A stretch of DNA of 64,000 bases from NCBI RefSeq assembly GCF_028867705.1, contig NZ_CP066171.1, positions 2,020,245 to 2,084,244 of the forward strand, read 5' to 3'. The notes under the pieces are model-generated. The model was not told the origin of the DNA, made no database searches, and saw only the letters and a program-made list of their open reading frames with translations. The number at the start of each line of letters is the position of its first letter. Positions within the stretch are counted from its first letter, which is position 1. The translations under genes and the position numbers were made by a program. Origin of the DNA: Thermoleophilum album (GTDB lineage: Bacteria; Actinomycetota; Thermoleophilia; Solirubrobacterales; Thermoleophilaceae). Below, piece by piece: positions 37,799 through 41,977 of this stretch.

Positions 37799-37871
37799 GC
37801 CCCCGTAGCTCAGTGGATAGAGCACGCGCCTCCTAAGCGCGGTGTCGCAGGTTCGATTCCTGCCGGGGGCA
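37799..37871 (+). tRNA. tRNA-Arg (anticodon CCT)
   Basis: Full cloverleaf of 73 nt: acceptor stem GCCCCCG / CGGGGGC with discriminator A; D stem GCTC/GAGC; anticodon stem CGCGC/GCGCG enclosing the loop CTCCTAA, which gives anticodon CCT; T arm GCAGG-TTCGATT-CCTGC. CCA is not encoded. A TACCCT box at 37779-37784 is 14 nt upstream and may be its -10. Reads the AGG Arg codon, which is rare in this GC-rich genome. Confidence 0.96.
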
Positions 37872-38625: not shown

Positions 38626-39015
38626 GTGCGCACGCTGGTTCGAATCGTTGCGGTAGTGGCGAGCCTGGTGATCGTCCTGAGCTTCGCGATGTTCGCTGCC
38701 GATCAGGGCGCTCGCGGCCGCGACGAGCAGCTCCAGAAACTTCAGGAGCAAATCGCGCCTCCGGCGCCCGGGGCGAACGCCGAGCGGTTGCGCGAAGCCC
38801 GTCACGGCAAGCTCCGCGAAGCCGTCGACGACGCCAACGACTTCTTGCTGAAACCGTTCGCCGGCGCCGTGACGAGCTCGAACCCGTGGGTCGCGCGTGG
38901 CGTCCCGGCTCTGCTCGGGCTGCTGGTGTGGGGCTTTTTGCTGGGGTTACTGGCGAATCTGATCCCCCAGCGTGCGCGAACCGTGCGCGACTGGCGCACC
39001 GGCCAGCCGATCTAG
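38626..39015 (+). CDS. small two-helix membrane protein, unknown
   Basis: 129 residues: a membrane helix near 5-24, a charged coiled region (LQKLQEQIAPPAPG then a Arg/Lys-rich helix), an amphipathic segment, and a second hydrophobic helix GVPALLGLLVWGFLLGLLANL. Not recognised. It stands divergent from pyrE and upstream of the riboswitch-controlled M23 gene, from which it is separated by its own promoter. GTG 38626. Confidence 0.6.
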   Translation: MRTLVRIVAVVASLVIVLSFAMFAADQGARGRDEQLQKLQEQIAPPAPGANAERLREARHGKLREAVDDANDFLLKPFAGAVTSSNPWVARGVPALLGLLVWGFLLGLLANLIPQRARTVRDWRTGQPI

Positions 39016-39084: not shown

Positions 39085-39113
39085 TTGGTATCGACGCCCG
39101 GACACGCTAACCT
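39085..39113 (+). promoter_or_regulatory. promoter for the riboswitch-M23 transcript
   Basis: TTGGTA (39085-39090) and TAACCT (39108-39113) are separated by 17 bp, the standard housekeeping spacing. Transcription from here would run through the c-di-AMP aptamer starting about 60 nt downstream. Confidence 0.6.
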
Positions 39114-39177
39114 GCGCGCAGCGCCCGCCCGACAGGGTCGTGGCGAAGGCAGTCGCCTTACATAAGGACTTGTAGTC

Positions 39178-39316
39178 CCAAGGCCGAGTCCTCGCGCCGC
39201 CCGGTGCGAGGAGCGGGGGACCCAAAGACCGCCACCGGTCAAGGGGCGAATCGCCGCCCGAGCGCGGCGTAGCGCCACTTCCAGCGCGAGCCCGACAGCT
39301 AACCCCGTAGGCCGCA
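39178..39316 (+). ncRNA. cyclic-di-AMP (ydaO-yuaA) riboswitch
   Basis: The 5' leader of the M23 gene has the conserved blocks of the ydaO aptamer: GGCCGAGTCC at the 5' side, a CCTCGC/GCGAGG hairpin, GAGCGGGGGACCCAAAG, a GACCG/CGGTC hairpin, AAGGGGCGAATCG, GCGTAGCGCCACTTCCAG and the hallmark CCGACAGCTAACCCCGTAGG. GGCC at 39182-39185 and 39310-39313 can close the first stem, and GGGG can pair with CCCC near the end. Such aptamers bind c-di-AMP and, in Actinobacteria, usually precede wall hydrolase or resuscitation genes and switch them off when the signal is high. The AGGAAGGGGG ribosome site follows at once, so translation or termination could be controlled. Confidence 0.93.
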
Positions 39317-39340
39317 ACAGGAAGGGGGCATGACCGAGAC

Positions 39341-40966
39341 ATGCACCAACAGCGTGATCTCGCATCACGGGAGTTGTGGCAACGAGAGATCGAGCGGTCG
39401 CGGCGAAGGCGCGCACTCGCGCCTGTGGCGAGAAAAGAGCTTGCGCGCAAGCGCCGCCTCTCCGCGGCGATCGTCTCGGCAGTGCTGGCGGGACACGCCG
39501 CACCCGCAGCTGCCGGGGGCCGCAGCGCCACAGGCGGCTCGGGAGAGGAACGCGGCGGACGCCAGGTCGTCGAGCTGCGCGAGGGATCGCTCCCGCTCGC
39601 GCGCGGTTCGGTAGGCGATCTCGTCGCCGAGGTGCAGCGCAAGCTCGGCGTTGCAGCGGACGGGATCTTCGGTCCCCAGACCGAGCGAGCCGTGCGCGCA
39701 TTCCAGGCCCGGGCCGGCCTGGCGAGCGACGGGATCGTCGGGCCGCTCACCTGGTCGGCCCTTTTCGGCGCCGACACCGTCGCCTCGCTGCCGTCGGGGA
39801 GCGAGCGCGCCGGTCTGGTCGCGGTTGCGCGCACCGCGGTGCGGGTGGCACGGGCGTCGGCCGTCGCGCGCGTGGAGCGACGTTTGGAGCGCCGAGCGCG
39901 CAAGCTTGGTGTGGACCGTGGGCGCACGTCGGGCGGCGCTGCCTGGGCGCCGGCAGCGCACAACCCGGCTGACAACACCGCGGTGCCCCCGTCGTCGCCC
40001 GCACCGGCCCCCGGTGGTGGCGTGTGCGGCACGACGACGCGCCCAGTGAGCGGGGTCGTGACGAGCAATTTCGGCGAGCGCCGCCCCGGCCATAGGCACA
40101 GCGGTATCGACATCGCAGCGCCGACGGGCACTCCGGTACGTGCGTTCGACTGCGGCACGGTGTCGGTTGCGGGGGCCCAGAGCGGCTACGGCAACATCGT
40201 GTGCATCCGCCACAGCGGATCGTTCAGCACCTGCTACGCGCACCTCAGTCGCTTCGCCGTGCGCGCGGGTCAGCGTGTCGCGAGCGGGCAGGTGATCGGC
40301 TACGTCGGTTGCACGGGCACGTGCACCGGTCCCCATCTGCACTTCGAGACGCGCGTCGGTGGCCACCCGGTCGATCCGCGGCAGCGCCTTGTCGCAGCGG
40401 GCACCGCGCGCACACGCGCGCAAGTGGCATCGCGCAGCGCGCAAGCGGTCACGCGAACGCGCACGGCCGCGACAGAGCGAGCGCAGCGGGGAGCGATCAC
40501 GGGGGCGAGCACGACCGCGCGCTGGAGCCAACCCCCGGCGACCGAGCGCGAAGCGCCGAACGGCGGCGCGGGTGCGGCGAGCACCCAGGCCGTCGGCGGC
40601 GCTCCGGCCACCGTCGACCCGTCGGCCACGGGCAGCGGCGGCGCGAACGCGCCGACCAGCACGTCAACAGCGAGCTCGCAAAACGCGGGTACGACTGTCC
40701 CGGCAAGCAGCGCCGCTGCGCCGCGAACCCAGGGCGCCCAACAAACGTCGCCCGCCCCGCGAGCGGCGGAACACAACGGAGCTACGAGCGTCATCCGTCC
40801 CCCTGCCGCGGCCGCCTCGCAACAGTCGGCGTCGACGAACGTTGTGGACTCGTCGGCAGCGGGGTCCGTCGACGCCGACGCCGCAGACGGCGCTAGCGGC
40901 ACAGCGGGCGACGCGGGCTCGGCAGCGAGTTCTGTTAGCGGGTCCGCGGCGAGCCCGGCGAACTGA
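39341..40966 (+). CDS. secreted M23 peptidoglycan endopeptidase with PG-binding domain
   Basis: 541 residues. A long basic lead and a hydrophobic signal (AAIVSAVLAGHAAPAAAG), a peptidoglycan-binding domain (VQRKLGVAADGIFGPQTERA, FQARAGLASDGIVGPLTW), a variable linker, then an M23 domain with zinc ligands His253 and Asp257 (HSGID) and catalytic HLH at 332-334 (GPHLHFE). Cys pairs in VCGTTT, AFDCG and GCTGTCTG may form disulfides. It cleaves peptide crosslinks in the wall. The C-terminal 170 residues are low-complexity Ala/Ser/Thr. ATG 39341 lies 12 nt after AGGAAGGGGG; expression is under the riboswitch at 39178-39316. Confidence 0.92.
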   Translation: MHQQRDLASRELWQREIERSRRRRALAPVARKELARKRRLSAAIVSAVLAGHAAPAAAGGRSATGGSGEERGGRQVVELREGSLPLARGSVGDLVAEVQRKLGVAADGIFGPQTERAVRAFQARAGLASDGIVGPLTWSALFGADTVASLPSGSERAGLVAVARTAVRVARASAVARVERRLERRARKLGVDRGRTSGGAAWAPAAHNPADNTAVPPSSPAPAPGGGVCGTTTRPVSGVVTSNFGERRPGHRHSGIDIAAPTGTPVRAFDCGTVSVAGAQSGYGNIVCIRHSGSFSTCYAHLSRFAVRAGQRVASGQVIGYVGCTGTCTGPHLHFETRVGGHPVDPRQRLVAAGTARTRAQVASRSAQAVTRTRTAATERAQRGAITGASTTARWSQPPATEREAPNGGAGAASTQAVGGAPATVDPSATGSGGANAPTSTSTASSQNAGTTVPASSAAAPRTQGAQQTSPAPRAAEHNGATSVIRPPAAAASQQSASTNVVDSSAAGSVDADAADGASGTAGDAGSAASSVSGSAASPAN

Positions 40967-41026
40967 CGAGCTTGCTGAGAGGCTTCCTCCCACGAGACAG
41001 GCAGAAGGCAAGGGGATCCGGGAACC

Positions 41027-41064
41027 GGCACGGCCCGCGCTGAGCGCGGGCCGTGCCCCTTTTC
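41027..41064 (+). terminator. intrinsic terminator after the M23 gene
   Basis: Perfect 14-bp stem GGCACGGCCCGCGC / GCGCGGGCCGTGCC with a 3-nt TGA loop and the tract CCTTTTC. Acts on the plus strand. It touches the stop codon of the convergent CPBP gene; on the minus strand the hairpin has no T tract. Confidence 0.9.
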
Positions 41065-41977
41065 AACCAGAAGGGGATCGCTGAAGCATCGGCAGAGTGC
41101 GGACGCTAGCCGCACACAGCGCCAGCATCGCTGCGCCGACAGCGAGGGTCACAGCGTCGTGCGGAGCCTGTCCCGAGAGTGCGAGCGTGTTGTTGAAGGC
41201 GTGCAGCGCGATCGGCGCGAACAGCGTGCCCGTGCGCTCGTAAAGGAGACAGAGAAGGAACCCGAACAGCGCGAGCGGCGGAACGATCAACAGTTGGTCG
41301 GCGCTCTGGAAGTCCCAGTGCAGAAACCCGAAGACGACACCGTCGACCGCGGCCGCGAGCAAGACCGCTAGCCGGCCCCGCAGCGCGCGGTAGAAGAAAC
41401 CGCGGAAAAACAGCTCTTCGGCGACCGGCGCCACAGCGACGATCAAGATCGCCGCCGCGACGAGACCGCCGACACCATCGTCGGCGCCGAGATCGCGCGC
41501 CACGGTCTGCTCGATGTCGGGTTTGACGAGCAGCGAGTAGGCGATCACGGCGGTGTAGTAGGCGACGGCAGCCAGCGCTACCGCCGCCGCGACCCGCCCG
41601 ACGGGACCACCACGAAAGCCGAAGTCGCGCGCGCGCACCGATCCCGACAGCGAGGCGAACGCCACCGCCGAAACGGCAAAAACCACCGCCTGCACGAGCG
41701 TGGCTAAAACGCGGAAGGCAAGCGTTTCGTCGTGTCCGCTGTCGATGCCGAGGAGAGCGGCGAGCATCCCGGCGAGCGCCAGGGTCATGAAGATCGCACA
41801 CACGAAGGCGGCGAACCCCTGCCACGGCCGCCATGCCGGCCCGTCTTGCGGCGCGCCGCGCACGCCAGCCGCACGGCGACCTCGCTGCGGTCGCGATCGC
41901 CACACGACGCGCGGCGCTTCGTGCGAAAGCTCTTCCCCGCCGTGCTTTGCGGAGTCTGTCGCTCGTTCCTCGTTCAC
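41063..41977 (-). CDS. CPBP-family intramembrane glutamic protease
   Basis: 304 residues with seven or eight hydrophobic helices after a 50-residue basic lead. The CPBP (Rce1-like) motifs are present: AEELFFRGFFYRAL (Glu187-Glu188), FGFLHWDF and LHAFNN. Family members cleave membrane or prenylated proteins, or act in bacteriocin immunity. Nothing here suggests a bacteriocin, so a housekeeping membrane role is more likely. GTG 41977 is a best guess; the ribosome site is not clear. Confidence 0.85.
   Translation of the reverse strand: MNEERATDSAKHGGEELSHEAPRVVWRSRPQRGRRAAGVRGAPQDGPAWRPWQGFAAFVCAIFMTLALAGMLAALLGIDSGHDETLAFRVLATLVQAVVFAVSAVAFASLSGSVRARDFGFRGGPVGRVAAAVALAAVAYYTAVIAYSLLVKPDIEQTVARDLGADDGVGGLVAAAILIVAVAPVAEELFFRGFFYRALRGRLAVLLAAAVDGVVFGFLHWDFQSADQLLIVPPLALFGFLLCLLYERTGTLFAPIALHAFNNTLALSGQAPHDAVTLAVGAAMLALCAASVRTLPMLQRSPSG

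What the first reader, a model, noticed from the sequence alone, without database searches (positions are those of the whole stretch)
39085..41064. Self-contained c-di-AMP riboswitch unit driving a wall endopeptidase
Seen: a -35/-10 pair (TTGGTA/TAACCT, 17 bp), the ydaO aptamer with CCGACAGCTAACCCCGTAGG, a ribosome site directly after it, one M23 gene, and a strong terminator. Known: ydaO aptamers bind c-di-AMP and often control wall hydrolases. Inferred: wall loosening is tied to c-di-AMP. The M23 protein has a long Ala/Ser-rich tail with no known domain.
Basis: partly seen in the sequence, partly recalled or inferred. Interest (0 to 1): 0.55.

Follow-up and report, generated by a model that had tools for sequence, protein, structure and literature searches.

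The report
c-di-AMP riboswitch before wall-cutting enzyme
This is a real RNA switch for the signal molecule c-di-AMP in front of a gene for a secreted cell-wall-cutting enzyme, a known kind of arrangement, but the enzyme begins with a conserved, undescribed tail that in this group of bacteria sits almost only on genes under this switch.

Summary
Window 39172-39328 matches the Rfam c-di-AMP aptamer RF00379 at 60.7 bits (cut-off 38). It is followed by a purine-rich ribosome site and a 541-residue gene (39341-40966), then a 14-bp terminator hairpin. The unit is one of seven aptamers in a 2.11-Mb genome (six above cut-off). Six of the seven precede wall enzymes or a CAP protein; one precedes a small membrane protein. 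A DisA-type cyclase gene is present. c-di-AMP control of wall hydrolases is already known in Streptomyces and Corynebacterium, so the core finding is ordinary. Most likely mechanism: c-di-AMP tightens helix P1, 27 nt before the start codon, and blocks translation. New here: residues 5-24 (RDLASxxxWxxSLERSRxRR) form a conserved N-terminal module without Pfam or NCBIfam match, recurring on M23, NlpC/P60-like and Rpf-like enzymes. Of 42 loci fetched by this motif alone, 37 have the aptamer just upstream. Codon variation shows selection on the peptide. I read it as an extended signal-peptide region for this regulon; its function is inferred.

The parts
39085..39113 (+). candidate promoter: -35 TTGGTA (39085-39090), -10 TAACCT (39108-39113)
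   Evidence: read directly; only such pair in 64 kb on either strand; -10 conserved and -35 not in genus mate; not found by the sigma-70 scan
39172..39328 (+). c-di-AMP (ydaO/yuaA) riboswitch aptamer
   Evidence: RF00379, 60.7 bits, gathering score 38
39182..39185 (+). P1 helix 5' strand GGCC
   Evidence: cmscan alignment; pairs listed
39310..39313 (+). P1 helix 3' strand GGCC, 27 nt before the start codon
   Evidence: cmscan alignment; pairs listed
39319..39328 (+). purine-rich ribosome site (GGAAGGGGG)
   Evidence: aligned GGAAGGGG in genus mate; a purine-rich ribosome-site-like word follows P1 in 109 of 127 aptamer loci
39341..40966 (+). secreted M23 peptidoglycan hydrolase, 541 aa
   Evidence: start codon supported by the conserved module that begins 4 residues later
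39353..39412 (+). conserved N-terminal module, residues 5-24 RDLASRELWQREIERSRRRR
   Evidence: helix 10-51 in the AlphaFold2 model
39461..39514 (+). hydrophobic signal-peptide core, residues 41-58
   Evidence: read from the translation; no signal-peptide predictor was available
39653..39763 (+). PG_binding_1 domain (residues 105-141)
   Evidence: PF01471, E 7.6e-14
40094..40378 (+). Peptidase_M23 domain (residues 252-346)
   Evidence: PF01551, E 1.4e-34; H253, D257, H301, H332, H334 invariant in 8 aligned sequences
40403..40963 (+). Ala/Ser/Thr-rich low-complexity tail (residues 355-541)
   Evidence: variable Pro/Ala/Ser-rich tails in relatives
41027..41064 (+). terminator-like hairpin, 14 bp with 3-nt loop, then CCTTTTC

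Best explanation
A single-gene c-di-AMP regulon unit. Transcription starts near 39120. At high c-di-AMP the aptamer folds, its 4-bp P1 helix closes 27 nt before the start codon, and 30S binding to the adjacent purine-rich site is hindered; at low c-di-AMP P1 opens and the hydrolase is made (an OFF switch acting on translation). The product is exported, binds peptidoglycan through its PG_binding_1 domain and cuts peptide cross-links with its M23 domain. The conserved N-terminal module stays in the cytoplasm as a helical extension of the signal peptide and tunes where or how fast the enzyme is exported. Shown: aptamer, gene, domains, regulon, module and its link to the aptamer. Inferred: transcription start, ligand binding, direction, level of control, peptide-bond specificity, role of the module.
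For: RF00379 60.7 bits. Seven aptamers in the genome, six above cut-off, before NlpC/P60-like, M23, Rpf-like, M23 (this gene), CAP, a small membrane protein and DPBB genes (the NlpC/P60-like call is by signature only). DisA-type cyclase gene. Start codon close to P1 in relatives: median gap 21 nt, 113 of 127 within 35 nt, leaving little room for a terminator between aptamer and gene. The C. glutamicum nlpC switch was reported to act on translation and to repress (PMC9960051, abstract, passages and discussion read). N-module: 37 of 42 motif-fetched loci have the aptamer upstream; third codon positions vary freely while residues hold; residues 10-51 modelled as one helix, block pLDDT 67-90.
Against: No ligand binding or expression data. 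Folding with P1 forced gives mixed changes: GGAAG 39320-39324 becomes freer (over 0.9 unpaired) while the GGGG of 39325-39328 becomes paired, and the start codon is not clearly freed or hidden; the pseudoknotted aptamer cannot be modelled by that program. The spacing between ribosome site and start codon is long. S. coelicolor rpfA is reported to terminate transcription instead (PMC10117811 passages). The M23 part folded poorly in the 8-sequence model.
Confidence: 0.68

Rival explanations
1. The switch acts on transcription: ligand-bound aptamer causes early termination or RNA polymerase release, as reported for S. coelicolor rpfA.
For: Transcription termination is reported for S. coelicolor rpfA, which is said to lack a canonical terminator (PMC10117811 and PMC9960051 passages).
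Against: No terminator-like site is listed on the + strand between aptamer and gene, and only 27 nt separate P1 from the start codon; close spacing in 113 of 127 aptamer loci.
Confidence: 0.25
2. The link between N-module and riboswitch is only common descent: one ancestral 5' unit (aptamer, module, PG-binding domain) was duplicated and fused to different catalytic domains, and the module has no role connected with the switch.
For: Module, signal core and PG-binding domain travel together across M23, NlpC/P60-like and Rpf-like enzymes; only 7 of 104 sampled aptamer genes carry the module.
Against: Residues stay conserved while codons diverge, and some genes carry more than one copy (8 of 72), so the module is itself under selection. 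That speaks for function, not for a link with c-di-AMP.
Confidence: 0.4
3. The N-module is an RNA element of the expression platform that happens to be translated.
For: In single-copy genes it lies within about 130 nt of the aptamer's P1.
Against: Third positions vary freely at the conserved residues, e.g. Leu written with 4 codons and Arg with 5 among 61 copies.
Confidence: 0.05
4. The gene is mainly transcribed by read-through from the upstream gene 38626-39015, so the unit is not self-contained.
For: The upstream frame is on the same strand, ends about 70 bp before the -35, and no terminator-like site is listed between them.
Against: The candidate promoter is unique in the window by the pattern used, and its -10 is conserved in the genus mate.
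Confidence: 0.15

Closest known systems
c-di-AMP riboswitch of cg2402/nlpC, Corynebacterium glutamicum (PMC9960051: abstract, passages and discussion read)
   Same: ydaO-type switch before a secreted wall peptidase in an actinobacterium; no canonical terminator; repression, probably of translation
   Different: NlpC/P60 enzyme in a seven-gene operon; no statement of a shared N-terminal module in what I read
ydaO-like switches of Streptomyces wall hydrolases, rpfA and six others in S. coelicolor (PMC10117811: passages read)
   Same: a regulon of about seven wall hydrolases per genome under the same aptamer class
   Different: transcription termination reported for rpfA
Extended signal peptides: YSIRK/GXXS of staphylococci and the long signal peptide of E. 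faecalis AtlA (PMC11841062: search listing; PMC10113225: passages read)
   Same: long conserved or unusual segment before the hydrophobic core of wall proteins; YSIRK is linked to septal secretion and the AtlA signal peptide to inefficient secretion
   Different: unrelated sequence by eye; the YSIRK and ESPR families were not compared directly, but no Pfam match covers the module

Membership tests
c-di-AMP riboswitch (RF00379) | covariance model score above the curators' cut-off over the full model | tested here: met
   60.7 against 38 bits, positions 1-134
c-di-AMP riboswitch (RF00379) | conserved core GGGGGACCC ... CAGCTAACCCCG.AGGC | tested here: met
   alignment
c-di-AMP riboswitch (RF00379) | genome can make c-di-AMP | tested here: met
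   one DAC-domain gene, 102.5 bits, DisA-like, next to a radA-like frame (the names DisA and RadA are my reading of the frames); enzyme activity not tested
c-di-AMP riboswitch (RF00379) | binds c-di-AMP and controls the gene | not testable with these tools
   needs in-line probing and reporter assays
Peptidase M23 (PF01551) | domain match and HxxxD / HxH metal ligands | tested here: met
   118.5 bits, cut-off 28.7; H253, D257, H332, H334 invariant in 8 sequences; the ligand motif is recalled
Peptidase M23 (PF01551) | endopeptidase activity on peptidoglycan | not testable with these tools
   needs enzyme assay
Extended signal peptide (YSIRK or ESPR type) | conserved segment before the hydrophobic core of exported proteins | tested here: met
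   core seen by eye only
Extended signal peptide (YSIRK or ESPR type) | match to a described signal-peptide family | tested here: not met
   no Pfam (E 0.01) or NCBIfam (E 0.1) match to residues 1-85; so not filed as a member
Extended signal peptide (YSIRK or ESPR type) | effect on site or rate of export | not testable with these tools
   needs localisation of fusions

The most novel reading that the evidence does not exclude
In Solirubrobacterales the c-di-AMP wall regulon is marked twice: at the RNA by the aptamer and at the protein by dedicated cytoplasmic N-terminal modules (RDLAS...SLERSR, one or two copies; and RRTVxIxGR...PDRIALWAV on small membrane proteins and DPBB fusions). These modules would bind a common cytoplasmic partner that places or gates export of the hydrolases, so that one signal sets both the amount and the site of wall cutting.
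Probability: 0.22. Interest if true: 0.68.

Novelty: new variant of a known kind. Interest (0 to 1): 0.42.

Why it matters
Wall hydrolases must be held in check or they lyse the cell. This unit extends the known c-di-AMP control of such enzymes to a deep actinobacterial class on which the held library gave no relevant c-di-AMP or riboswitch paper by the searches used. It also supplies a testable new handle: a conserved N-terminal module that follows the riboswitch from one enzyme class to another. If the module steers export, it would help answer how these bacteria decide where to open the wall, and it would point to partners for the unknown small membrane protein of the same regulon.

Tried and rejected
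RNA folding of the leader with and without P1: not decisive, since the aptamer is pseudoknotted. AlphaFold2 on the whole protein with 8 sequences: only residues about 10-50 and the PG-binding helices are confident; no fold search was run because the rest is too poor. Idea that the module is an RNA element: rejected on codon variation (the pattern used there fixes several of the 19 residues by selection, so only codon freedom is read from it). Idea that the true start is the ATG at 39330: rejected, because it reads a 94-aa frame without the conserved module. In one search the longest-frame rule picked some wrong frames (for example L008, L012, L021); for the Pfam count another rule was used, which gave 104 proteins from 108 loci (4 gave none) and still includes some wrong frames (for example L101, L102), so the counts are lower bounds. 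Weak module hits (E between about 1e-5 and 0.01, loci L228-L238) were left out of the 37 of 42; some are noise (L232). Loci L172-L191, other than L187, are the same genes as earlier loci and were left out too, as was L209 (same gene as L147). L245 is the same place as L228 and was left out.

Full report
WHAT IS THERE. The c-di-AMP aptamer family RF00379 matches window 39172-39328, + strand, at 60.7 bits (gathering score 38) over all 134 model positions; the only other Rfam match above threshold in the 64 kb is a tRNA at 37799-37871. A pair of that quality (TTG with at least 4 of 6, TANNNT, spacer 16-18) occurs once on this strand in 64 kb and not on the other; the pattern was set after seeing the site. 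In the only other genome of the genus in the sample (L045) the -10 is kept and the -35 is not. P1 is 4 base pairs, 39182-39185 with 39310-39313; GGAAGGGGG follows, and the start codon is 39341. The gene ends at 40966; a perfect 14-bp hairpin at 41027-41057 with CCTTTTC follows, facing a convergent gene 41063-41977 of the Rce1-like protease family.

THE PROTEIN. 541 residues: conserved N-terminal module (5-24), basic stretch, hydrophobic core (about 41-58, by eye), PG_binding_1 (105-141, E 7.6e-14), M23 (252-346, E 1.4e-34), and a 187-residue tail that is 27% Ala and 15% Ser. The best related solved structures are M23 peptidases. H253, D257, H301, H332 and H334 are invariant in eight aligned sequences.

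THE REGULON. The genome (2.11 Mb, one contig) has seven RF00379 matches at E <= 0.001, six above cut-off. The genes behind them: NlpC/P60-like by the YDCSG signature only, no Pfam match (L001); M23 with coiled coil (L002); PG_binding_1 plus transglycosylase-like domain of the Rpf kind (L003); this gene (L004); CAP (L005); a 144-residue protein with one hydrophobic stretch and no Pfam match (L006); DPBB (L007, aptamer 27.8 bits, below cut-off). One DAC-domain gene is present, DisA-like beside a RadA-like frame, and three DHHA1 genes, not resolved further. All 61 genomes of the relatives sample, own included, have at least one aptamer above cut-off. From these I took 128 aptamer loci; in 127 a downstream frame was called. 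The median gap from P1 to the called start is 21 nt, 113 of 127 within 35 nt, and 109 of 127 have a purine-rich ribosome-site-like word within 40 nt. Some called frames are wrong, so these are approximate. Of 104 downstream proteins from the aptamer-fetched loci, Pfam at E <= 0.01 gives PG_binding_1 29, M23 23, NLPC_P60 16, DPBB 10, transglycosylase-like 8, CAP 2; the YDCSG-type signature is in 38 members of the main cluster of 90.

THE N-TERMINAL MODULE. The search with the window protein showed that its first 150 residues recur on proteins just behind aptamers (with the aptamer places). Aligned N-termini give the consensus RDLASxExWxRSLERSRRRR, followed by a basic stretch. The same start precedes M23 (L004), NlpC/P60-like (L018, L086) and Rpf-like (L076, L121) catalytic parts. 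No Pfam match at E 0.01 and no NCBIfam match at E 0.1 touches it. A 44-position profile found it in 66 of 151 relatives at E <= 0.01 (the tail of that list is noise), in 76 of 399 genomes of the class at E <= 1e-4, 71 of them in the same order, and in 3 of 396 of the phylum, all in the same order and one of them the window's own genome.

IS IT TIED TO THE RIBOSWITCH? In all held loci, 72 distinct genes carry the module at 20 bits or more; 67 have the aptamer within 300 nt upstream (60 by pattern, 7 by cmscan) and 5 do not. That set is partly selected, because some loci were fetched by the aptamer or by homology to the window protein. The fairer set is the 42 loci fetched because of the motif alone (L187, L192-L208, L210-L227, L239-L244, leaving out same-gene repeats and weak hits): 37 have the aptamer (cmscan; L216 by pattern only, cmscan negative). 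Misses: L192, L197, L198 and L241, which are one NlpC/P60-like gene in one genus (the genus of L241's genome is given), with no RF00379 match even at E 1; and L243, where a recognisable 3' half of the aptamer remains. The profile was trained on genes behind aptamers, but a homology search does not need an aptamer, so the result is informative. Conversely only 7 of 104 aptamer-fetched genes carry the module: the switch does not need it. Among 61 copies, third codon positions vary freely at conserved residues, so selection is on the peptide. Eight of the 72 genes have more than one copy. AlphaFold2 makes residues 10-51 one helix with block pLDDT 67-90 over residues 11-50.

MECHANISM. Because P1 closes 27 nt before the start codon and no terminator-like site is listed between, I favour translational OFF control, as reporters indicate for C. 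glutamicum nlpC. Transcription control as reported for S. coelicolor rpfA remains open. The folding program was not decisive. For the module, the simplest reading is an extended signal-peptide region that affects site or rate of export, by analogy with YSIRK proteins and AtlA (PMC11841062 search listing; PMC10113225 passages). The strongest rival is plain co-inheritance of an ancestral 5' unit with swapped catalytic domains.

NAMED RELATIVES. Module plus aptamer is present in Solirubrobacter soli DSM 22325 (L250), S. phytolaccae KCTC 29190 (L249), Candidatus Siliceabacter maunaloa (L256) and two Solirubrobacteraceae MAGs (L247, L248); S. soli belongs to class Thermoleophilia.

NOVELTY. c-di-AMP control of actinobacterial wall hydrolases is known. 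Literature searches that found nothing on this class or module: (open-licence PMC only; search listings seen). The module and its tie to the switch I hold to be undescribed, on those searches and the family scans only.

Noticed in passing
L006:1655-2086 (G000:C1, own genome); family alignments A2, A4: Small membrane protein (RRTVxIxGR...PDRIALWAV, one hydrophobic stretch) without Pfam match; one hit in each of 55 of 101 genomes, and 25 of 29 tested loci have a c-di-AMP aptamer (misses L343, L344 at a contig edge, L349, L350; L346 at a contig edge not tested). In L148 and L162 the PDR..LWAV stretch, and in L011 both parts, continue into PG-binding and DPBB-like parts.
   Followed up: partly
L200, L201, L204, L207, L212, L213, L217, L220: Two copies of the N-terminal module in one frame before the hydrophobic core.
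   Followed up: partly
G000:C1 671584, 682660, 691626: Three of the genome's seven c-di-AMP aptamers lie within about 20 kb, the first close to the RNase P RNA gene.
   Followed up: no
L007:1501-1660: Aptamer below cut-off (27.8 bits) but with the conserved core and a DPBB gene behind it.
   Followed up: no
L243 upstream of the module gene: Apparently decayed aptamer: 3' half recognisable, 5' half not, before an M23-like gene with the module.
   Followed up: partly
window 39330-39614: Out-of-frame ATG 11 nt before the start codon, right after the purine-rich site; the genus mate has GTG at the aligned place and L049/L091 an ATG 8 nt upstream. May be chance or a small overlapping frame.
   Followed up: no
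L246 (JAPSGM010000209.1): A contig labelled Chloroflexota encodes a 45% identical relative with the module; probably mis-binned Solirubrobacterales DNA.
   Followed up: no
window 38626-39015: 129-residue membrane-like protein upstream on the same strand with no Pfam match.
   Followed up: no
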